From NCBI GenBank assembly GCA_022778585.1, contig JALFTI010000002.1:1-64000 (forward strand): a DNA stretch of 64,000 nt. The letters are read 5' to 3'. Each line of letters begins with the position of its first letter. The stretch's first letter is position 1. This document shows, piece after piece, positions 385 to 20,757 of this stretch. Source of the DNA: Pygmaiobacter massiliensis (GTDB lineage Bacteria; Bacillota; Clostridia; Oscillospirales; Ruminococcaceae). The notes under the pieces are model-generated. The model was not told where the DNA came from, searched no databases, and worked only from the letters and a program-made list of their open reading frames with translations. A program made the translations under genes and the position numbers.

Positions 385-520
385 TAAAAAGCTTGTTGGG
401 CAGACAAACTGCGGAGAAGCAGGTGTAAATCCTGCACGGTCCCGCCGCCGTGATGCATATTTTGTGCAAAGTCGGATCGCCGCTGTCTGTCCGGTACAAC
501 CTCCACGATGGATGGAGCAG
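385..520 (+). promoter_or_regulatory. Cobalamin riboswitch (approximate bounds)
   Basis: Core aagcaggtgtaaatcctgcacggtcccgccgccgtgatg followed by aaagtcggatcgcc, preceded by TATAAT at 362-367, directly upstream of a B12 uptake/biosynthesis operon. Confidence 0.8.
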
Positions 521-596
521 GTACCGCTCCCGCTGTTGCGCGGCTGGGCCGCCTCAGCTTTTTTGCGTTGTCAAATGCTGCATGCGGGGATCGGAC

Positions 597-8814: not shown

Positions 8815-10032
8815 ATGAAACTGACCGTAGTGGGTATGGGCATGGGTGCGGAGAGCGGTATGACCGGACAGGCGCACCAGGCCATAGAGCAGGCGGGCCT
8901 GATTTTGGGGGCCGAGCGAATGCTGAACGCAGTTTCGTTTGGGCGCGGCAAAAAGGTGCGGGCGGTAAAGCCTGCGCAGATTGCCCAGGCGCTGGCCGAA
9001 AATCCGGAAAGGCCGGCCTGTGTGGTATGCAGCGGAGATACCGGTTTTTACAGCCTGGCCGATTCTCTGCGCCGCAGCCTGCCTGACTGGGAGATTGAGA
9101 CAGTTGCGGGCATTAGCACCGTGCAGTACCTGGCGGCAAAACTGGGCAGAAGCTGGCAACAGGTGCACTTGGTAAGTGCGCATGGGGTATTGTGCGACCC
9201 CGTGGGACAGGTACTTTGTGCCCGCGAAACCTTTTTTTTGACCGGGGGCGCCGGCAGCGCCGAAGATATTCTGCGCAGTTTGTGTGAGGCCGGCCTGGGG
9301 GATGCGCAGGTTGCGGTGGGACAAAAACTTTCCTACCCGGACGAACAAATTGTCCAGGCAACTGCGGCCGAGCTTTTGGACCGCCCATTTTTGCCCCTTG
9401 CGGCGGTTTGGGTAACCCGTACCGACCACGCCCGGCCCGAGCATTTTACCCCCGGCCTGCCGGATGAACAGTTCTGCCGCGGCCCTGTACCCATGACAAA
9501 GCAGTTGGTGCGTGCGGCTATCAGCAGTCTGCTGGCGCCTGGCGGCGAGGATGTTTTGTGGGATGTAGGGGCCGGTACCGGTTCGGTCAGTGTGGAAATG
9601 GCGCTTTCCTCTCCGCGGTGCAAGGTATATGCGGTGGAAAAAAATCCCGAAGCTTGCTGTTTGATCGAGCAAAACCGAAAGCAATTCGGGGCCTATAACC
9701 TGAAAATTTGTCCCGGCAGCGCGCCGCAGGTGCTCGCAGAGCTGCCGGCTCCGGATAAGGTCTTCATCGGCGGGGCAGACGGCCAGCTGGAAGAGATTAT
9801 GCGGCTGGTGCTTTGCAAAAATGCAGCGGCAGTGCTGGTGGCCAGCGCCATTACGCTGGAAAGCACTGCCGCCTTGAACGCGCTTGGGAAAAAGCTGCGG
9901 GAACAGGGCCTTTTGTGCGAATACCAGTTGGTACAGCTTGCTGTCAGCGAGATGGAACCGCTGGGGCGCTACCATCGCTTCAAACCGCAAAACCCCATTG
10001 TTCTGTTTCGGGCAAAGGGGGCTGGCAGATGA
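8815..10032 (+). CDS. cbiET: Fused precorrin-6Y C5,15-methyltransferase CbiE-CbiT (CobL-like)
   Basis: N-terminal CbiE methylase plus C-terminal CbiT domain (LWDVGAGTGSVSVEMAL). Confidence 0.92.
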   Translation: MKLTVVGMGMGAESGMTGQAHQAIEQAGLILGAERMLNAVSFGRGKKVRAVKPAQIAQALAENPERPACVVCSGDTGFYSLADSLRRSLPDWEIETVAGISTVQYLAAKLGRSWQQVHLVSAHGVLCDPVGQVLCARETFFLTGGAGSAEDILRSLCEAGLGDAQVAVGQKLSYPDEQIVQATAAELLDRPFLPLAAVWVTRTDHARPEHFTPGLPDEQFCRGPVPMTKQLVRAAISSLLAPGGEDVLWDVGAGTGSVSVEMALSSPRCKVYAVEKNPEACCLIEQNRKQFGAYNLKICPGSAPQVLAELPAPDKVFIGGADGQLEEIMRLVLCKNAAAVLVASAITLESTAALNALGKKLREQGLLCEYQLVQLAVSEMEPLGRYHRFKPQNPIVLFRAKGAGR

Positions 10033-11411
10033 AAAAGGTTGTACTGCCGCGGCTGCTTTTGGCGGCTACCCGGTCCGGGGCGGGAAAAACCACAATGACC
10101 TGCGCGCTTTTGGCCGCTTTTCAGGCGCGGGGGCTCACCCTTTCTGCCTTTAAATGCGGACCGGATTATATAGACCCGATGTTTCACCGCGCGGTATTTG
10201 GAGCAAACGGGTGCAACCTGGACCTGTTTTTCAATCAGGAAGCGCAGGTTTGTTCGCTTTTGGCCCAGTATGGGCAGGGCAGCCAGCTTGCCGTTTTAGA
10301 AGGGGTTATGGGCTATTACGATGGTCTGGGCGGTTTTACAGACAGGGCCAGTGCCCACCATTTGGCCTGTGCCACAAATACGCCGGCACTTTTGGTGGTG
10401 GATGCCGAAGGAGCAAGCCGCAGCCTTTTGGCGCTGGTACAGGGGTTTTGTCAATTTCAAAAGCCCAGCGGCATCTGCGGTATTCTGTTAAACCGGTGCA
10501 GCCCCATGCTTTACCCAAAACTTGCGGCCGAAATGGAAAAAAACTGTGGTTTGCCGGTGCTGGGGTATCTGCCGCGTATGCCAAAGGCAGCGCTTTCCAG
10601 CCGGCATTTGGGGTTGGTAACCGCCGCCGAAGTGCCAAAGCTTTCCCAAAAACTGAAAGCCCTGGGCGAACAGGCACAAAAAAGTGTGGATTTGGACCGC
10701 ATTTTAGCCTTGGCCGCCACTGCGCCGGTGTTGGACGAGCCTAGAGCTTGGTTTAAAGAGGATAAAAAAGAGCCGGTAAAAATTGCGCTGGCACAGGATG
10801 AAGCATTCTGCTTTTACTACCGGGAAAACCTGGACCTTTTGCGGCAGGCGGGGGCTGAGCTTGTGCCGTTTTCCCCCTTGCGGGACAAAGCATTGCCCAA
10901 AGGTGTGGCAGCGCTGTACCTTGGGGGCGGCTATCCGGAACTTTATACCGCAAAGCTGGCCCAAAATGAGCCAATGCGCCGTGCCATTTTACAGGCCGGG
11001 CGCGAGGGGATGCCCATTTTTGCCGAATGCGGCGGCTTTTTGTACCTGCAGCAGGCACTTTGCCCGCCCGAAAGTGACCAGGAACCGCAGCCTATGTGCC
11101 AGCTTTTGCCAGGGGTTGGAAAAAACACCGGGCATCTTACCCGGTTTGGATATGTCACCCTTACTGCAAAACAGGACAATCTGCTGCTTAAAAAAGGCGA
11201 ACAGATTCCGGCGCATGAATTTCACTATTATGACTGTACCGACCCCGGACAGGATTTGTTGGCCCAAAAGGCAGATGGCCGCAGCTGGGACTGCGCGGTG
11301 GCAAAGCATAACCTGTTTGCAGGCTTTGGCCATTTGTATTTTCCGGCAAAGCCGCAGCTGGCCCAAAGGCTGGTAGAAGCTGCCCGGTACTGGCAAAAAC
11401 AAAATTTGTGA
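10029..11411 (+). CDS. cbiA: Cobyrinate a,c-diamide synthase CbiA
   Basis: LLLAATRSGAGKTTMT, FKCGPDYIDPMFH, glutaminase FAECGGFLYL; start 10029 rather than 9813. Confidence 0.95.
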   Translation: MKKVVLPRLLLAATRSGAGKTTMTCALLAAFQARGLTLSAFKCGPDYIDPMFHRAVFGANGCNLDLFFNQEAQVCSLLAQYGQGSQLAVLEGVMGYYDGLGGFTDRASAHHLACATNTPALLVVDAEGASRSLLALVQGFCQFQKPSGICGILLNRCSPMLYPKLAAEMEKNCGLPVLGYLPRMPKAALSSRHLGLVTAAEVPKLSQKLKALGEQAQKSVDLDRILALAATAPVLDEPRAWFKEDKKEPVKIALAQDEAFCFYYRENLDLLRQAGAELVPFSPLRDKALPKGVAALYLGGGYPELYTAKLAQNEPMRRAILQAGREGMPIFAECGGFLYLQQALCPPESDQEPQPMCQLLPGVGKNTGHLTRFGYVTLTAKQDNLLLKKGEQIPAHEFHYYDCTDPGQDLLAQKADGRSWDCAVAKHNLFAGFGHLYFPAKPQLAQRLVEAARYWQKQNL

Positions 11412-11513: not shown

Positions 11514-12569
11514 ATGACAGTAGCCGAATACGCTGCAGCCATTGGCCCGGCAGACCAAAATGCCGCGCAGGCTGCCTTAAAAAAATGGGACAGTGTGGCA
11601 AAACCGCTGGGCAGCCTGGGCCTTTTGGAGGATGCCGTGGTCCGCTGCTGCGCTATGGCCCGGGATACAGGCTTTCGTCCCAATCAGAAAGCGGTAGCAG
11701 TGTTCTGTGCCGACAATGGCGTGGTGGATGAAAAGGTTACCCAAACTGGGCGCGAAGTGACAGGTATCGTGGCCAAAAACCTGTGTGTGGAGGCCACTTC
11801 GGTCTGCAAAATGGCAAAGGTAGCCGGTGCGCGGGTGGTGCCGGTGGATATTGGGCTGGAACAGCCGGTGGAAGATGACCACATGATAGATCTACACTGT
11901 TTGCGCTGTACCGGCAATATTGCCAAAGGTCCGGCCATGCCGCCAGAGGTAGCGCAGAAGCTGGTTTTGGCCGGTGCAAAGCTGGCCGAAAAGCTGGCCG
12001 GCGAAGGGGTACAGCTGCTGGCCACCGGCGAAATGGGCATTGGCAATACCACCACCGCCAGTGCGGTGGCAAGTGTGCTTTTGCACAAGGACCCAGCGCT
12101 TATCACAGGTGCCGGTGCGGGGCTTTCGGCCGAAGGGGTCAAGCATAAAACCCAGGTAATCAGGCAGGCAATCGCCCTGAACGCCCCCAATCCCGAAGAT
12201 CCCATGGAAATTCTTGCCCGGCTGGGCGGATTTGACATTGCCGGCATGACCGGCCTTTACCTGGGGGCGGCCGCCAGCCGTATTCCCTGCCTGATCGATG
12301 GAGTGATCAGCGCGGCGGCAGCTTTGTTGGCAGTTCGCATCTGCCCCAATGCGGCGGATTTTTTGTTGGCAAGCCATGTTTCGGCCGAGCCAGCCGGCGC
12401 ACTTTTGCTGCAGGCGTTGGGGCTTTCTCCGCTTATTACCGCCGGTATGCGGCTGGGGGAAGGAACCGGTGCAGTGGCGGCTATGCCGCTTTTGGATATG
12501 GCTTTTGCCGTCTTTCATGAGATGAGCACCTTTTCCGATATTAAAATCGAAGCTTATCATCGGTTTTAA
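11514..12569 (+). CDS. cobT: Nicotinate-nucleotide-DMB phosphoribosyltransferase CobT
   Basis: KPLGSLGLLED, FCADNGVVDEKVTQ, GEMGIGNTTTASAV. Confidence 0.96.
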   Translation: MTVAEYAAAIGPADQNAAQAALKKWDSVAKPLGSLGLLEDAVVRCCAMARDTGFRPNQKAVAVFCADNGVVDEKVTQTGREVTGIVAKNLCVEATSVCKMAKVAGARVVPVDIGLEQPVEDDHMIDLHCLRCTGNIAKGPAMPPEVAQKLVLAGAKLAEKLAGEGVQLLATGEMGIGNTTTASAVASVLLHKDPALITGAGAGLSAEGVKHKTQVIRQAIALNAPNPEDPMEILARLGGFDIAGMTGLYLGAAASRIPCLIDGVISAAAALLAVRICPNAADFLLASHVSAEPAGALLLQALGLSPLITAGMRLGEGTGAVAAMPLLDMAFAVFHEMSTFSDIKIEAYHRF

Positions 12570-12596: not shown

Positions 12597-13142
12597 ATGG
12601 TCCACCTGATTATGGGGGGCGCAGCCAGCGGAAAAAGCGTATATGCCGAACGGCTGGCCAACAGCCTGCCCGGGTCAAAGCTCTACCTGGCAACCCTGCG
12701 CCCGTTCGATGAGGAGTGCCGTCAAAAAATTCAAAAGCATCAAACCCGCCGGGCCAAGGACGGCTGGCAGACGCAGGAAGTATTCGGCAGCATGCAAAAG
12801 GTGTGGGTGCCGCAGGGGGCTACGGTTTTGCTGGAGGACCTTTCCAATCTTACGGCAAATCTTCTGTTTGGCCCAAACCCCGAAACGGCGCGCGACGCCC
12901 TTTTAAAAAGTATCCGCCACCTGGCAGAGGAGGCAAAAACACTGGTTTTGGTGGGCAATGACCTGTTTTGCGACGGCAAAGTGTACCCACCCGAAACGAT
13001 GGAATACCTGCAGCTTTTGGCCCAGGGACAGTCTTTTGCGGCGAATCTTGCCGATACTGTCACCGAGGTGGTGTGCGGGATACCGCTTGCGGTAAAAGGG
13101 CCGCTGCCCTTTGCCGGTACTGGATGGGAGGAACAGGCGTAA
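12597..13142 (+). CDS. cobU: Adenosylcobinamide kinase/guanylyltransferase CobU
   Basis: GGAASGKSVYAE P-loop and HQTRRAKDGWQT motif. Confidence 0.9.
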   Translation: MVHLIMGGAASGKSVYAERLANSLPGSKLYLATLRPFDEECRQKIQKHQTRRAKDGWQTQEVFGSMQKVWVPQGATVLLEDLSNLTANLLFGPNPETARDALLKSIRHLAEEAKTLVLVGNDLFCDGKVYPPETMEYLQLLAQGQSFAANLADTVTEVVCGIPLAVKGPLPFAGTGWEEQA

Positions 13143-13144
13143 AC

Positions 13145-13921
13145 ATGCTTTTATTGGAAACGGTGGCCGTGGCCTTTTCTATGTTTTCGGCCCTGCCAAT
13201 GCCTCAGTTTGAATGGAACCGCAATAATATGCGCTATGCGCTGTGTGCGTTTCCGCTGGTGGGGGTGGCGGCCGGTGCGCTTTTGGTGGGCTGGCAGATA
13301 ATTTGCCAGGCGGTGCCGCTTTCCCAGCTGGCACGGGCGGTCGGCTTTACGGTAATCCCCATTTTGGTCAGCGGGGGCATTCATCTGGACGGCTACTGCG
13401 ACAGCTGTGACGCGCTGGCAAGCCATGCCCCGGCCGAAAAAAAGCTCGAAATTCTCGCAGACCCGCATATTGGGGCCTTCGGGGTTATAAGACTTGCTGT
13501 TTATCTGCTGGTTTTTCTTGCCCTATGCGCAGAATTGCCGCAAACCGCAGGGGCGGTTTCCTGTTTGGCGCTGGTGCAGCCGGCAAGCCGGGCGGCCAGC
13601 GGTTTTGGAGTGGCTGCGCTGAACTGCGCAAAGAACAGCGGCCTTGTCCACACCTTTGCAAATGCTGCGGACCGACACCGGGTAAAGGTGGTGTGTGTGG
13701 TTATATGGGCCGGGTGCAGCCTGGCAATGGCTGTGTGCTGGCCCTTTGGCGGTACCCTTGCGGCAGTGGCTGTCGCGGCGGCCTTTTGGCGGTATCGGGC
13801 GGTCAGTTATAGCCAGTTTGGCGGCATTACCGGCGATTTGGCAGGCTGGTTTTTGCAGCGCGCTCAACTGGCGGCTTTGGCGGCGCTTTGTATAGCAGCA
13901 TGGCTGCAGCAGCTGGTTTAA
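13145..13921 (+). CDS. cobS: Cobalamin synthase CobS
   Basis: GGIHLDGYCDSCDALASH, DPHIGAFGV; polytopic. Confidence 0.95.
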   Translation: MLLLETVAVAFSMFSALPMPQFEWNRNNMRYALCAFPLVGVAAGALLVGWQIICQAVPLSQLARAVGFTVIPILVSGGIHLDGYCDSCDALASHAPAEKKLEILADPHIGAFGVIRLAVYLLVFLALCAELPQTAGAVSCLALVQPASRAASGFGVAALNCAKNSGLVHTFANAADRHRVKVVCVVIWAGCSLAMAVCWPFGGTLAAVAVAAAFWRYRAVSYSQFGGITGDLAGWFLQRAQLAALAALCIAAWLQQLV

Positions 13922-13934
13922 AAGGAGAACAGGC

Positions 13935-14276
13935 ATGATTTTGGTAATAGGCGGATATGCTGCGGGCAAGCGGGAATGGGTTTCGCGGCAGCTGGGCTAC
14001 CCACAAGCACAAATGAGTGACTGCGCCGAAGACAAGGTGCCGGTTTTTTACGGGCTGGAAAGTCAGGCCGAGCGTTTTTTAAAGGACCCCAAGCCGCTGC
14101 TGCAAAAAAAGGTGGTTATCTGCTGCGAGGTTGGCTGCGGCGTGGTGCCGCTTGCAGCGGATGAGCGGGCCCGGCGGGAGTCGGTGGGCAAGCTGTGCCA
14201 GCTGCTTGCCCGGCAGGCGGATTGTGTGGTGCGGGTTATTTGCGGTGTGGGGCAGCCTATTAAGGGGGCGTTTTAG
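13935..14276 (+). CDS. Short CobU-like protein (113 aa)
   Basis: MILVIGGYAAGKREW resembles the CobU P-loop; VICCEVGCGVVPLAADERARRES resembles CobU SNEVGxGIVP; HRxRR..W segment missing. Confidence 0.75.
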   Translation: MILVIGGYAAGKREWVSRQLGYPQAQMSDCAEDKVPVFYGLESQAERFLKDPKPLLQKKVVICCEVGCGVVPLAADERARRESVGKLCQLLARQADCVVRVICGVGQPIKGAF

Positions 14277-14887
14277 TGGAAATTTGGTTTTACCGCCATG
14301 GTATGACCGATGCAAACCGGTCCGGCAAATATATAGGCAGAACCGATGAGCCGCTGTGCCCGGCAGGCGCTGCGCAGCTTACCGCAGTTTCCCGGCAGGT
14401 AAAAAGGGTGTATGTGTCACCGCTTGACCGTGCAAAACAAACCGCGCAAATTTTATTTCCGCTTGCGCAGCAGGTAGAGGTAAAAGGGCTGCAGGAGATG
14501 GATTTTGGAGTGTTTGAAGGCAAAAATTTTGCCCAGTTGGAACACAACGCCGCCTACCGGGCCTGGGTCGAGTCGGGCTGCGAAGCGCCCTGCCCGGGTG
14601 GCGAAAGCAAGCAGCAGTTTACAAAGCGCACAGCCGATGCATTTGGGCAGCTGGTGGACGAGGCGTTTTTGCGCCAGGAGGAACAGCTTTTTGTGGTGGC
14701 CCATGGCGGCAGTATTATGGCCGCGCTTTCCCAGTTTTGCCTGCCGCGCAAGCCCTATTTTGAATGGCAGACCCCCAATGGGGGCGCCTGGCGGCTAAAC
14801 GCCATACAGAAGGAATGGAAGGAACAGCGGGTGCTGCGGCTTTTAGCCGGCCCCAGCCAGCTGGACAGGAGGCAGTGGGATAAATGA
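14276..14887 (+). CDS. cobC: Alpha-ribazole phosphatase CobC-like (histidine phosphatase); GTG start
   Basis: FYRHGMTDANRSGKYIGRTDEPL, VSPLDRAKQTA, VVAHGGSIMA. Confidence 0.88.
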   Translation: MEIWFYRHGMTDANRSGKYIGRTDEPLCPAGAAQLTAVSRQVKRVYVSPLDRAKQTAQILFPLAQQVEVKGLQEMDFGVFEGKNFAQLEHNAAYRAWVESGCEAPCPGGESKQQFTKRTADAFGQLVDEAFLRQEEQLFVVAHGGSIMAALSQFCLPRKPYFEWQTPNGGAWRLNAIQKEWKEQRVLRLLAGPSQLDRRQWDK

Positions 14888-15849
14888 TACTGGTGGGTGC
14901 AATGGTGGCGGGTTTTTTGTGGGACCTTTTGGCAGGCGACCCCGCCTGGCTGCCCCATCCGGTGGTGGGAATGGGAAAGCTTATCAGTTTTTTGGAAAAA
15001 AAGCTGCGGCGGCTTTTTCCGGTTACGGCTGCAGGCGAACGGGCGGCAGGCTGTTTGCTGGTGGTTTTGGTGCTGGGGGTTGTGGCGGGCGTTTCGGTCG
15101 GTTGTCTTTGGGCGGTACGCCGTTTCATTTGGGTTTGGGCGGCGCTGCAGGCTTTCTTTTGCGGCCAGTGCCTGGCCGCAAAAGGCCTTTGGCAGGAGAG
15201 CAGCCGGGTCCAACAAGCGCTTGCCGCCGGCGACCTGCCGGCAGCCCGAAAAGCGGTGGCGCGGATTGTAGGGCGCGACACCGAAGCCCTTTCTGCGCAG
15301 GGGGTCGCGCGGGCGGCGGTGGAAACTGTGGCCGAAAACACCAGCGACGGTGTGGTGGCGCCGTTGTTTTGGTTTATGCTGGCGGGCGCACCGGGCGCGC
15401 TGTGCTATAAAGCGGTAAACACCATGGACAGCATGGTGGGGTACCGAAACGATCGCTACCGATATTTTGGCACTGCAGCCGCAAGGCTGGATGACCTTGC
15501 AAATCTGCTGCCGGCCCGCCTGGCAGCTTTGTGTATGGTGGCGGCAGCACCTGTTGTGGGGCTTTCGGGCAAGGGTGCTTTTCGCATTTTTTGCAGGGAT
15601 CGCTATTGTCATAAAAGCCCCAATTCGGCCCAAACCGAAAGCGCCTGTGCCGGTGCTTTGGGGGTACGGCTGGCAGGAAGCGCCAGCTATTTTGGAAAGC
15701 TTGTGGAAAAACCGTATATTGGCGATGATACCCGGCCCATTGAACCAGAGGATATTCACCGGGCAAACCGGCTGATGGTTGTTTCCAGCATGCTTTCCTG
15801 TTTGCTGTTTTGTGGCCTGCGGGCGGCGGTAGTGTTATTTTTAGCTTAA
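14884..15849 (+). CDS. cbiB: Adenosylcobinamide-phosphate synthase CbiB
   Basis: GFLWDLLAGDPAWLPHPVVGMGKLI, AVNTMDSMVGYRNDRY. Confidence 0.95.
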   Translation: MILVGAMVAGFLWDLLAGDPAWLPHPVVGMGKLISFLEKKLRRLFPVTAAGERAAGCLLVVLVLGVVAGVSVGCLWAVRRFIWVWAALQAFFCGQCLAAKGLWQESSRVQQALAAGDLPAARKAVARIVGRDTEALSAQGVARAAVETVAENTSDGVVAPLFWFMLAGAPGALCYKAVNTMDSMVGYRNDRYRYFGTAAARLDDLANLLPARLAALCMVAAAPVVGLSGKGAFRIFCRDRYCHKSPNSAQTESACAGALGVRLAGSASYFGKLVEKPYIGDDTRPIEPEDIHRANRLMVVSSMLSCLLFCGLRAAVVLFLA

Positions 15850-15874: not shown

Positions 15875-16939
15875 ATGCAGCTGGTCCATGGGGGAGATGT
15901 GGAAGGCTACCGGGAGCGATACGGCTGTGACGGACTGGATTTTTCGGCCAATGTAAGCCCGCTGGGACTTCCCGAAGGGGTAAAACAGGCTGCGGCACAG
16001 GCGCTTAAAGATGCCCAGCGCTATCCAGACCCGCTGTGCCGGCAACTGCGTGGCGCTCTTGCCGCAAAGGAGGGGCTTTTGCCGGACGAAATTTTCTGCG
16101 GCTCGGGCGCGGCGGATCTGATCTGGAGGCTGGCGCTGGCCTTGGGGCCTGCAAAGGCCGTGGTGCCAAGCCCCACTTTTGCCGAGTATGAAGCTGCCCT
16201 TACCGCCATGCACTGGCAGATCGAGCGGGTCGCAGCGCGCCGCGAGGAGGCGTTTGCCATCCCGGTGGAGCGCATGCTTGCAGCAATTCGGCCGGGGGTA
16301 AAGCTGGTGTTTTTGTGTCAGCCCAATAACCCCACCGGCGTTGTCTGTCCCAAAGAGGGGGCACTGCAGCTGTTAAGTGCCTGCCGCCAGGTGGGGGCGA
16401 AGCTGGTGGTGGATGAATGCTTTGTGGAATTTTTGGATAACCCGTCCGAGGTAAGCCTTGCCGGGCTTTCGGCGTCGCAGCCAAGCCTGGTGCGGCTGTG
16501 TGCGTTTACCAAAACCTATGCCATGGCCGGGCTAAGGCTGGGCTGGCTGTGCTGTGCCGACCCTGCGTTGATCGAGGCATTGTATCGGTCCGGCCAGCCC
16601 TGGGCGGTGAGCAATGTGGCCCAGGCGGCAGGTATTGCAGCGCTGCAGGAAAAAGAATACCTTGCCAGCGTGAGAAATTTGGTGATGCGCGAGCGGCCAA
16701 GAATGTGCCGTGCGTTTCAAAAAATGGGGATAAAAGCGGTTGGCAGCGCCAATTTTTTGTTTTTTACCGCTCCTGTAAAAAACTTTTGTCAGCAGATGGA
16801 ACAACAGGGCATTTTGGTGCGCAATTGCGAAAATTACCCGGGCCTTGCCGCGGGTGACTGCCGGGTGGCCGTGCGCACACCGCAGGAAAATGATCGGTTG
16901 CTTGCGGCCTGTGCGCGGATACTGGAAGGGAGCAGATGA
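15875..16939 (+). CDS. cobD: L-threonine-O-3-phosphate decarboxylase CobD (PLP aminotransferase fold)
   Basis: HGGDVEGYRERYGCDGLDFSANVSPLGLP, FLCQPNNPTG, AFTKTYAMAGLRLG. Confidence 0.9.
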   Translation: MQLVHGGDVEGYRERYGCDGLDFSANVSPLGLPEGVKQAAAQALKDAQRYPDPLCRQLRGALAAKEGLLPDEIFCGSGAADLIWRLALALGPAKAVVPSPTFAEYEAALTAMHWQIERVAARREEAFAIPVERMLAAIRPGVKLVFLCQPNNPTGVVCPKEGALQLLSACRQVGAKLVVDECFVEFLDNPSEVSLAGLSASQPSLVRLCAFTKTYAMAGLRLGWLCCADPALIEALYRSGQPWAVSNVAQAAGIAALQEKEYLASVRNLVMRERPRMCRAFQKMGIKAVGSANFLFFTAPVKNFCQQMEQQGILVRNCENYPGLAAGDCRVAVRTPQENDRLLAACARILEGSR

Positions 16940-17904
16940 TGGGGATTTTTTGCGTCGTGGACGGCATGACCGACGAGTGCAGCCCGCTGCTAAAAAGCCT
17001 TGCGCCCTGGTTTTCGGGTTGGGTGCAGCCCACCCGGCCCGATAAACCTGCCGACAGCCTGCGCTCGGCCGCCTGCTTTTTGGGGCTAAAGGAAGCAAAT
17101 TTGCCTGGCCGCGCCTGGTTTGAAGCGTTGGGAGCGGGTATTACCTTTGGTGCAGAGGACCTGCTTTTGCGGGCAAGCTGGGTGGCGTGCGACGAACAGG
17201 GGCGAATGCTCAGGCCGGACACAGCGCCGCAAAATCAGCCCACAGGCCGGTGGTACCATTCTTTGGGCGGTTATAAAGCCATTGTGCAGGTAGAGGGAAA
17301 AGCCTCGCTGCTGGAAACGATAAAAACCTTTCCCCCGCATGAACACTGGGGCGAGCCGGCCGAAAGCTGTATGCCCCAGGGCCTGCCGGACGATTTGGAA
17401 AAGGCCCTTCGGCAGGCGGGCAGTCGCAGCAGCAGGCTGATTGTTTGGGCGCCGGCAGCGCAAGCGGGTGTTTTTGCAAAAAAAACGGGGTATATGGTGG
17501 CGGGTATTGACCTTATGCTGGGGCTGGGGTGCGCGGTGGGACTAAAACCAGTGAAGCCTTTAAGAGCCACCGGCGAGACCGATACAGACCTTGCAGCAAA
17601 ATGCCGTGCGGCACTTTGCTGCGCGCAAAAAGGAGAGTTTGTCTATCTGCACCTGAATGGTGCGGATGAAGCTTCGCACCGAAAAGACCCGGCTGAAAAA
17701 CGCTGCTTTTTGGAAAAGGCCGCTTTCCAATGCCTCATTCCACTGTTGAAAAGCAATGTGGCGGTGCGTATTACGGCAGACCATGCCACAAGCCCCGTTA
17801 CCGGAAAACATCTGCCGCTTTGGCAGCCGGTGTGGCAAAATACTGCTGCGGGGCAAAAAAGCCCCCAAAAAGCTTGGCAGCCGCAGGCTCTTTGCCTTTT
17901 TTGA
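16936..17904 (+). CDS. ApgM-like alkaline-phosphatase-superfamily protein (cofactor-independent phosphoglycerate mutase-like)
   Basis: VDGMTDE; PADSLRSAACFLG; GRAWFEALGAGITFGAEDLLLRASWV; HLNGADEASHRKDPAEK; ITADHATSP: ordered ApgM-type motifs. Confidence 0.75.
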   Translation: MMGIFCVVDGMTDECSPLLKSLAPWFSGWVQPTRPDKPADSLRSAACFLGLKEANLPGRAWFEALGAGITFGAEDLLLRASWVACDEQGRMLRPDTAPQNQPTGRWYHSLGGYKAIVQVEGKASLLETIKTFPPHEHWGEPAESCMPQGLPDDLEKALRQAGSRSSRLIVWAPAAQAGVFAKKTGYMVAGIDLMLGLGCAVGLKPVKPLRATGETDTDLAAKCRAALCCAQKGEFVYLHLNGADEASHRKDPAEKRCFLEKAAFQCLIPLLKSNVAVRITADHATSPVTGKHLPLWQPVWQNTAAGQKSPQKAWQPQALCLF

Positions 17905-18065: not shown

Positions 18066-19577
18066 ATGACAAAGGCAATCATGGTACAGGGCACTATGTC
18101 CAATGCAGGAAAAAGTGTGCTGACGGCAGCTTTGTGCCGCATTTTTCTGCAGGACGGTTATTCGCCGGCCCCCTTTAAAAGCCAGAATATGGCGCTGAAC
18201 AGCTTTATAACCCGCGAAGGGTTAGAGATGGGGCGCGCACAGGTGATGCAGGCCGAAGCGGCCCGGGTGGAACCTTCGGTGCGGATGAACCCCATTTTGT
18301 TAAAGCCTACCAGCGACCAGGGCAGCCAGCTGATCGTGAACGGCGAGGTGGTGGGCAATTTTTCCGCAGCCGAATATTTTGCAAAGAAAAAGCAGCTTAT
18401 TCCCCAAATTATGCAGGCCTACCAATCTTTGGCTGCACAGCACGATATTATTGTGCTGGAAGGGGCGGGAAGCCCGGCCGAAATAAACCTAAAACAGGAC
18501 GACATTGTGAATATGGGCATGGCAAAACTCGCCAAAGCGCCGGTTCTGCTTTGCGGAGATATTGACCGGGGCGGTGTGTTTGCAAGCCTGTACGGAACGG
18601 TGGAGCTGCTGGAAAAAGAAGAGCGGGCCATGGTAAAGGGGTTCATCATCAATAAATTCAGGGGAGATGAATCCTTGCTTGCTCCGGGCCTTGCTATGCT
18701 GGAACAGCGCACCGGAATTCCGGTATTGGGGGTAATTCCCTGGCTGGATGTGGATTTGGAGGACGAGGACAGCCTTTCCGGCCGGCTTGCCTGTCATAAT
18801 ACCCAAAAGCCGCTGGATGTGGCGGTCATTCGCCTGCCCCGCATTTCAAACTTTACCGACCTGAATGCACTGGAACGGTTTGGACAGGTTGGCGTTCGCT
18901 ATGTGGAGCAGATAAACCAGCTGGGCCGGCCGGATTTGATGATTCTGCCGGGCACCAAAAACACCATGGCAGACCTGCGCTGGCTGCGCCAGTGCGGGCT
19001 GGAAGCAGGCATCTGCCGGCTGTGTTCGGAGGGAGTGCCGCTTATCGGCATCTGCGGCGGCTACCAAATGCTGGGCCAAAGCCTTTCGGACCCATACGGC
19101 GTGGAGGAGGGAGGCCAAATGCGCGGCATGGGGCTTTTGCCTTGCGAAACCACTTTCTCCAAAGAAAAAAGCCGTACCCGGGTTAGCGGGCAGGTTGTGG
19201 GGGCTGCCGGCTTTTTTGCACCGCTTGAAGGGGCGCAGTGCTCGGGGTATGAAATTCATATGGGGCGCACAGTGCCGGCAGGCGATGCGCCGGACCATTT
19301 TTTGCAGCTGACCGATGCAGCCGGCAAACAAACACGGGACGGGCTTTGCAGTGGTAATGTGCTGGGCAGCTATCTACACGGTTTGTTCGACGAGGGCGAT
19401 TTCGCGGAGCGGCTTGTTGATTTGTTGGCCCAGCGCAAAGGCCTTTCCAAAGAAAATGCGCCAAAGGAAAGGTATGCAGAATATAAACAGCGCCAGTATG
19501 ATAAGCTGGCATTTGAGGTGCGGCGCCATCTGGACCTGAAAAGGGTGTACCGCATTTTGCAGGAGGGAATTGAATGA
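18066..19577 (+). CDS. cbiP: Cobyric acid synthase CbiP/CobQ
   Basis: [50 protein letters not shown]. Confidence 0.96.
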
Positions 19578-20095
19578 CACAAAAGCGGGGGTTTATTCAT
19601 CTGTACTGCGGTGATGGAAAAGGAAAGACCACAGCTGCTATGGGCCTATGTATGCGGGCCGCTGGGGCTGGGCTGCAGGTGGTTGTGGTTCAGTTTTTAA
19701 AAAACGGCGATTCTTCGGAGCTTTCCATCCTTTCCGCTCATAAAAATGTGACGGTGCTGGCCGGTAAAGGGGGCGACAAGTTTACCTGCCGCATGACCGA
19801 TGCAGAAAAAGCTGCCGCAAGAACCATTCACGATAAGAACCTCGATGCTGCTCTTGCTATGCCCTGTGATCTTTTGCTGCTGGACGAAGCGGCCGCGGCC
19901 TGCCGGCTTGGTTTGGTGGATGAAAAAAAGGTAAAGGCGCTTTGCCAAAATAAGCCGCCCCGGCTGGAGCTGGTACTGACCGGCCGCAACCCGCCCGATT
20001 TTATGGTGCAGGCGGCCGACTACATTACTGAAATGCGCTGCGTACGCCATCCGTACCAGCAAGGCATTGGGGCCAGAAAGGGGATCGAGTTTTAA
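19574..20095 (+). CDS. cobO: Cob(I)yrinic acid a,c-diamide adenosyltransferase (CobA/BtuR/CobO)
   Basis: [31 protein letters not shown]. Confidence 0.95.
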
Positions 20096-20757
20096 TGCAG
20101 CAGGAAAAAAACGCCCAGACCATTAGGCTGCGCCAGGTACTGCCCGATCAAATTGAGCAGGAAAGCATGCGAATTATTGTTCGGGAACTAAAACAGCAGA
20201 ATATTACACTGGACGAATCGGTTGCACCCATTGTAAAGCGGGTAATTCATACTTCGGCTGATTTTGAATACGCGCATACCCTGCACTTTTCTGCCAATGC
20301 GGTGGAACGGGGGATAAAAGCCCTGCAGCAGGGCGCCACCATTGTGACCGATACCAATATGGCAAAGGCCGGTATTAACCACAAGGCGCTTGCCAAGCTG
20401 GGTTGTCAGGTGGTATGCTTTATGGCAGATGAAGAGGTTGCGGCAGCGGCCAAGGCCGCCGGGACCACCCGGGCGGTGGCCAGTATGGAGAAAGCGGCAA
20501 AGCTTTCCGGCCCCGTTGTTTTCGCCATTGGCAATGCACCCACCGCTTTGGTCAGACTGTGCCAGCTGGCCGTGCAGCAAGCGGTCAGCCCGGAATTGAT
20601 TATTGGGGTTCCGGTGGGGTTTGTGAATGTGGTGGAGAGCAAACAGCTGCTGGCCAGTTTGCCGGTGCCCCACATTGTAGCAATGGGCCGCAAGGGCGGC
20701 AGCAATGTGGCTGCCGCAATCTGCAATGCTTTGCTTTACCAGGCCGGCGGCCGTTAG
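20095..20757 (+). CDS. cbiC: (Cobalt-)precorrin-8 methylmutase CbiC
   Basis: IVKRVIHTSADFEYA, GATIVTDTNMAKAGI, AIGNAPTAL. Confidence 0.95.
   Translation: MQQEKNAQTIRLRQVLPDQIEQESMRIIVRELKQQNITLDESVAPIVKRVIHTSADFEYAHTLHFSANAVERGIKALQQGATIVTDTNMAKAGINHKALAKLGCQVVCFMADEEVAAAAKAAGTTRAVASMEKAAKLSGPVVFAIGNAPTALVRLCQLAVQQAVSPELIIGVPVGFVNVVESKQLLASLPVPHIVAMGRKGGSNVAAAICNALLYQAGGR

What the first reader, a model, noticed from the sequence alone, without database searches (positions are those of the whole stretch)
16936..17904. ApgM-like enzyme in the B12 operon, directly after the threonine-phosphate decarboxylase: candidate replacement for PduX
Sequence: the 322-aa product carries, in order, the ApgM-type motifs VDGMTDE, PADSLRSAACFLG, GRAWFEALGAGI...LLRASWV, DEASHRKDPAEK and ITADHATSP. 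It overlaps cobD by 4 nt (translational coupling). Established: CobD decarboxylates L-threonine-O-3-phosphate, normally made by the GHMP-type kinase PduX (other kinases, BluE and CblS, are known). No GHMP kinase is visible here, and an alpha-ribazole phosphatase (cobC) is already present. From memory, some ApgM-like proteins have been annotated as functional analogues of homoserine kinase. Inference: this protein may supply L-Thr-P, or process a phosphorylated aminopropanol or nucleotide-loop intermediate. The C-terminus is shorter than a typical ApgM, so it may be a distinct subfamily.
Basis: partly seen in the sequence, partly recalled or inferred. Interest (0 to 1): 0.78.

Follow-up and report, generated by a model that had tools for sequence, protein, structure and literature searches.

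The report
B12-operon phosphotransferase CbiU, PduX stand-in
A gene next to cobD in this bacterium's vitamin B12 operon belongs to a widespread but untested enzyme family (proposed as "CbiU" in 2015) that most likely makes threonine phosphate for B12 where the usual enzyme, PduX, is missing.

Summary
ORF 16936-17904 (322 aa) overlaps cobD by 4 nt inside a B12 operon. It keeps the full ApgM/iPGM-type two-metal active site (D9, S41, D244, H248, D282, H283, H292) but scores far below the ApgM and "proposed homoserine kinase" cutoffs.

It belongs to a distinct family: 54 loci in Bacillota, Synergistota and Atribacterota, of which 52 carry other cob genes and 34 sit directly 3' of cobD. The family avoids PduX: 0 of 10 family-positive CobD+ genomes carry it, against 108 of 208 others (p=9e-4, not phylogeny-corrected). 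48 of 60 family genomes have ordinary ThrB, and CobC accompanies the family in 25 of 29 stretches with cobS, so homoserine kinase or CobC replacement are unlikely.

L-threonine-phosphate supply is the best explanation, but the idea is not new: Dehre_1608 of Dehalobacter restrictus was proposed as this L-threonine kinase ("cbiU") in 2015, and it falls in the same family. No activity has been shown for any member in the papers I could search; the phosphate donor is unknown. Caveat: this MAG shows no canonical phosphoglycerate mutase.

The parts
16936..17904 (+). cbiU-family gene (ApgM-like, 322 aa), candidate L-threonine-phosphate-forming phosphotransferase
15875..16939 (+). cobD, L-threonine-O-3-phosphate decarboxylase (354 aa, no extra domain)
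   Evidence: best hit TIGR01140 266.8 bits over residues 5-346 (curated cutoff 290.55, not reached)
14884..15849 (+). cbiB, adenosylcobinamide-phosphate synthase (consumes aminopropanol phosphate)
   Evidence: TIGR00380 above cutoff
14276..14887 (+). cobC, alpha-ribazole phosphatase
   Evidence: best hit TIGR03162 116.1 bits (cutoff 162.9, not reached)
13142..13921 (+). cobS, cobalamin synthase
   Evidence: best hit TIGR00317 99.1 bits (cutoff 110, not reached)
12597..13142 (+). cobU, cobinamide kinase/guanylyltransferase
   Evidence: best hit NF004469 89.5 bits (cutoff 161, not reached)
11520..12569 (+). cobT (start codon approximate)
   Evidence: TIGR03160 above cutoff
10023..11411 (+). cbiA, cobyrinate a,c-diamide synthase (start approximate)
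   Evidence: NF002204 above cutoff
18066..19577 (+). cobQ/cbiP, cobyric acid synthase
   Evidence: NF001989 above cutoff
19574..20095 (+). cobA/btuR, corrinoid adenosyltransferase
   Evidence: best hit NF004637 142.6 bits (cutoff 185, not reached)
20095..20757 (+). cbiC, precorrin-8X methylmutase
   Evidence: best hit NF004057 219.5 bits (cutoff 311, not reached)
388..528 (+). AdoCbl riboswitch upstream on the same strand; presumed control of the cluster
   Evidence: RF01482 63.5 bits, gathering 50; that one transcript reaches the gene is inferred

Best explanation
The gene is a divergent member of the CbiU family. It most likely supplies L-threonine-O-3-phosphate to CobD, so that CobD and then CbiB can build the aminopropanol phosphate arm of B12, in place of PduX. 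By analogy with the iPGM/ApgM fold, a donor phosphate is first moved onto Ser41 at a two-metal site (D9, D282, H283 / D244, H248, H292) and then handed to the hydroxyl of L-threonine. Shown here: fold, conserved active site, conserved position beside cobD, absence of PduX, presence of ordinary ThrB. Inferred: substrate threonine and the phosphoserine (or phosphothreonine) intermediate. Unknown: the donor (ATP, PEP, phosphoglycerate or other).
For: Family linkage: 51 of 54 loci carry cobD and 34 have the gene directly 3' of it. Anti-occurrence: 0 of 10 family genomes against 108 of 208 other CobD+ genomes have PduX; the PduX query also gave no hit at E<=1e-5 in 51 family genomes. PduX lies beside cobD in many other genomes, e.g. 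G692 and G575, so the two occupy the same slot. D9, D244, E245, H248, D282, H283 and H292 are invariant in 53 of 53 members and position 41 is Ser (46) or Thr (7). AlphaFold model pLDDT 91; best PDB matches are archaeal ApgM 2zkt, 3idd and 3kd8. The nearest relatives are TIGR02535 proteins, one of which is needed for threonine synthesis in Bacteroides, and Nitrospirae relatives lie in hom-thrC-X-aspartokinase operons: the wider family works in homoserine/threonine metabolism. The genome has ThrB and no PduX.
Against: No enzyme of the family was found to have been assayed. About 100 CobD+ genomes have neither PduX nor this family, so absence of PduX alone does not prove replacement. The anti-occurrence is not phylogeny-corrected: the 10 genomes fall in 7 genera, and the window's class nearly lacks PduX anyway. 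BT2402, the TIGR02535 analogue, failed to complement an E. coli thrB mutant. E245, shared with TIGR02535, is Met in the Nitrospirae relatives, so it is not a firm amino-acid signature.
Confidence: 0.63

Rival explanations
1. It is a phosphatase or phosphomutase acting elsewhere in nucleotide-loop assembly (for example on alpha-ribazole phosphate, AdoCbl-5'-phosphate or aminopropanol phosphate).
For: The alkaline phosphatase superfamily fold is commonly hydrolytic; the gene sits among nucleotide-loop genes. The literature lists an alternative to CobC called CblZ whose identity I could not check.
Against: CobC is in the same stretch in 25 of 29 family stretches that include cobS, and in the window itself. 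The position follows cobD, not cobC. The phosphatase reading does not explain the absence of PduX.
Confidence: 0.15
2. It is a homoserine kinase analogue (ThrB2/TIGR02535-like) for threonine biosynthesis.
For: Homology to TIGR02535; TIGR02535 proteins are proposed ThrB replacements.
Against: Own genome and 48 of 60 family genomes have ThrB over cutoff; the family is split from TIGR02535-type proteins by a 100/100 branch; linkage is to cob genes, not hom/thrC/asd.
Confidence: 0.06
3. It is the organism's phosphoglycerate mutase that happens to lie in the B12 operon.
For: No iPGM (TIGR01307) or dPGM (TIGR01258) match was found in this MAG; the best structural match is archaeal phosphoglycerate mutase.
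Against: 17 of 18 family genomes tested have an ordinary iPGM, as do five of six congeners over cutoff, so a MAG gap is more likely. The score is far below PGM cutoffs. Linkage to cobD is conserved.
Confidence: 0.05
4. It has a B12-related role other than phosphate transfer to threonine, for example making the precursor of a different amino-alcohol arm, or a regulatory role.
For: The substrate cannot be read from sequence; some cobamides carry another amino-alcohol arm (own knowledge).
Against: CobD and CbiB look ordinary; no positive evidence.
Confidence: 0.1

Closest known systems
CbiU, Dehre_1608 of Dehalobacter restrictus (PMC4285132, 2015; proposed L-threonine kinase, untested)
   Same: Same protein family by HMM (the G639 protein scores 364 bits against the family model; TIGR02535-type proteins at most 213) and tree; directly 3' of cobD, before cobQ and cobA; no PduX in the genome.
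   Different: The window protein is a divergent member on a long branch, 322 aa against 373 aa.
ThrB2 / TIGR02535 proposed homoserine kinase (e.g. BT2402)
   Same: ApgM fold, two-metal site, nucleophile Ser, the D-E-x-x-H metal motif.
   Different: Split from this family by a 100/100 branch, linked to threonine genes rather than cob genes in published work, about 400 aa, E-A-P-D-E-C motif in place of N-G-A-D-E-A.
Archaeal ApgM phosphoglycerate mutase (2zkt, 3kd8, 3idd)
   Same: Best structural and PDB sequence matches.
   Different: 19-21% identity to 2zkt in the structural alignment, shorter C-terminus, D-A-A-G-H / D-V-A-G-H in place of D-E-A-x-H.
PduX
   Same: Proposed same reaction and the same place beside cobD.
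   Different: GHMP kinase fold, unrelated by sequence; not found together with this family.

Membership tests
CbiU (Dehre_1608-like, B12-linked ApgM) | Groups with the D. restrictus protein, apart from TIGR02535 proteins | tested here: met
   family HMM gap (290 bits and more against at most 213; one contig-end fragment at 222) and a 100/100 branch; no outgroup, so one side of a branch rather than a proven clade
CbiU (Dehre_1608-like, B12-linked ApgM) | Located in a corrinoid operon with cobD | tested here: met
   4-nt overlap with cobD; 51 of 54 loci with cobD
CbiU (Dehre_1608-like, B12-linked ApgM) | No pduX in the genome | tested here: met
   (PduX query sequence written from memory, validated by 123 hits)
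CbiU (Dehre_1608-like, B12-linked ApgM) | L-threonine kinase activity | not testable with these tools
   needs an enzyme assay
ApgM phosphoglycerate mutase (TIGR00306) | Score above the curated cutoff | tested here: not met
   102.7 of 320 bits
ApgM phosphoglycerate mutase (TIGR00306) | Metal ligands and nucleophile of the iPGM-type site | tested here: met
   assignment to iPGM ligands by motif alignment (own knowledge of the iPGM ligands)
TIGR02535 proposed homoserine kinase | Score above the curated cutoff | tested here: not met
   67.1 of 446.3 bits; only 3 of 60 family genomes hold any TIGR02535 over cutoff
TIGR02535 proposed homoserine kinase | Fills a missing ThrB | tested here: not met
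   ThrB present, 257 bits over cutoff 168
PduX | GHMP kinase domain | tested here: not met
   no GHMP match in P0001
CobC / alternative alpha-ribazole phosphatase | Takes the place of a missing cobC | tested here: not met
   cobC in the same operon and in 25 of 29 family stretches that include cobS

The most novel reading that the evidence does not exclude
The CbiU family makes L-threonine phosphate by an ATP-independent, alkaline-phosphatase-superfamily mechanism: a small phosphorylated metabolite (such as PEP or phosphoglycerate) phosphorylates the active-site Ser/Thr, and the phosphate is passed to L-threonine. It would be a further non-homologous solution to the PduX step, with a fold not used by PduX.
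Probability: 0.33. Interest if true: 0.7.

Novelty: new member of a known kind. Interest (0 to 1): 0.48.

Why it matters
Many B12-producing bacteria lack PduX, and how they make threonine phosphate is unknown: here, 110 of 218 CobD+ genomes of the phylum had no PduX hit. A defined family with a motif signature, 54 loci and a clear anti-occurrence turns a single-genome suggestion from 2015 into a directly testable family-wide claim. It would also improve prediction of which gut bacteria make B12.

Tried and rejected
C-terminal frameshift: the other two frames after 17800 show no family-like C-terminus, and relative L024 has a similarly short end, so rejected. Nitrospirae relatives grouping with the window protein in a first tree: treated as long-branch attraction and left out of the careful tree. 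E245 as a proof of amino-acid substrate: weakened by Met in Nitrospirae. Getting PduX from the E. coli E24377A pdu operon failed, because no pduX is annotated there; a Salmonella PduX sequence written from memory was used instead and validated. CobC replacement: rejected by co-occurrence. BluE was not searched (no sequence at hand; reported from Rhodobacterales). A bifunctional CobD with an extra kinase domain, as I recall for Methanosarcina mazei, is not what the window has: its 354-aa CobD has no extension.

Full report
What is there. ORF 16936-17904 (+) encodes 322 aa and overlaps cobD by 4 nt. It lies in a B12 cluster that includes cbiH, cbiJ, cbiE/T, cbiA, cobT, cobU, cobS, cobC, cbiB, cobD, this gene, cobQ, cobA and cbiC, with an AdoCbl riboswitch at 388-528 on the same strand. 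Several of these neighbours (cobU, cobS, cobC, cobD, cobA, cbiC) are named from their best NCBIfam hit, which does not reach the curated cutoff; their order and full-length matches leave little doubt. Pfam places the protein in the PhosphMutase/Metalloenzyme group over cutoff. NCBIfam apgM and TIGR02535 match well below their cutoffs.

A family, not a one-off. A profile from six first members found 54 loci in genome contigs (L053-L106) in Clostridia, Negativicutes, Peptococcaceae, Tissierellia, Synergistaceae and Atribacteria. Fifty-two carry other cob genes, 51 carry cobD, and in 34 the gene is directly 3' of cobD. Members are 306-429 aa (plus a 275-aa contig-end fragment). The patterns used for the scan were strict, so 54 is a lower bound. 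All 53 aligned members keep D9, D244, E245, H248, D282, H283 and H292, and position 41 is Ser in 46 and Thr in 7. The AlphaFold model is confident (pLDDT 91.3, pTM 0.90), and the best PDB matches are archaeal ApgM proteins 2zkt, 3idd and 3kd8.

Relation to known proteins. Against TIGR02535-type proteins the family forms one side of a 100/100 branch; without an outgroup this is not proof of a clade. In a phylum-wide search the family scores 290 bits or more and TIGR02535-type proteins at most 213; a contig-end fragment in G863 scored 222. One member, in G639, lies on a contig of exactly 2,943,336 bp, the published genome size of Dehalobacter restrictus PER-K23 (PMC3910700), in the operon order cbiA-cobU-cobS-cobC-cbiB-cobD-X-cobQ-cobA. 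I therefore take it to be Dehre_1608, which a 2015 paper named cbiU and proposed as an L-threonine kinase because no pduX was found (PMC4285132). The name cbiU occurs in no other relevant paper of the library; most subscription papers are not in that library.

Tests of function. (a) PduX: 123 of 398 phylum genomes have it. Among 218 CobD+ genomes, 0 of 10 family-positive and 108 of 208 family-negative genomes have PduX, Fisher p=9e-4, not phylogeny-corrected: the ten fall in seven genera. In a set of 51 family genomes there was no hit at E<=1e-5 and one broken fragment at 3e-4; this set overlaps the ten (the window's own genome is in both, and G443 and G761 give identical coordinates, so are the same genome). 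(b) Own genome: three GHMP kinases, namely ThrB, IspE and GalK; ThrB is confirmed by TIGR00191, while IspE and GalK were assigned by reading the sequences. (c) ThrB is over cutoff in 48 of 60 family genomes and TIGR02535 over cutoff in 3 of 60, so homoserine kinase is not the missing function. (d) CobC is present in 25 of 29 stretches with cobS and the family gene, so this is not a CobC replacement. (e) iPGM is present in 17 of 18 family genomes; the exception is the window's own MAG, which also lacks dPGM, while five of six congeners have iPGM over cutoff. I read this as a MAG gap but cannot prove it.

Supporting relatives. Nine Nitrospirae loci (L107-L115) carry a related gene between thrC and aspartokinase; eight also show hom upstream, and the ninth (L108) begins inside thrC. 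This places the wider family in threonine/homoserine metabolism. Their motif has Met where the B12 family and TIGR02535 have Glu, so that Glu is not a firm substrate marker.

Mechanism. By established iPGM chemistry (own knowledge), a phosphoryl group moves onto the active-site Ser, coordinated by two metals, then to an acceptor hydroxyl. Here the acceptor is inferred to be L-threonine. The donor is unknown; the TIGRFam curators suggested a donor such as PEP for TIGR02535 (PMC7311316). BT2402 did not complement E. coli thrB, which would fit a donor or partner not available there, or another role.

Corrections to the finding. CblS is described in the literature as the kinase of the CblT/CblS alpha-ribazole system, not a threonine kinase. 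BluE is a real threonine kinase. The shorter C-terminus is a family trait.

Verdict. Real, conserved, most likely the threonine-phosphate supplier, previously proposed, biochemically untested in the papers searched.

Noticed in passing
L107-L115 (Nitrospirae): An ApgM-like gene (407-446 aa) sits between thrC and aspartokinase in hom-thrC-X-ask operons: a further candidate homoserine kinase analogue, with D-M-A-S-H in place of D-E-A-x-H.
   Followed up: partly
phylum survey: About 100 CobD+ genomes of the window's phylum have neither PduX nor the CbiU family, so their L-threonine kinase is still unaccounted for.
   Followed up: no
window 13935-14276: A 113-aa ORF between cobS and cobC starts like CobU (GGYAAGKREWVSRQL) but has no NCBIfam match; possibly a CobU-like P-loop fragment.
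   Followed up: no
G000 (window's genome): No iPGM or dPGM match in a MAG estimated 98% complete, although five of six congeners have a full-length iPGM.
   Followed up: partly
L116 (Solirubrobacteraceae): An ApgM-like fragment with a P-D-E-A-A-H-R motif lies just after cobQ in an actinobacterial MAG contig.
   Followed up: no
L095: A family member with no cob gene within about 7 kb, one of two such loci (the other, L101, is on a short contig).
   Followed up: partly
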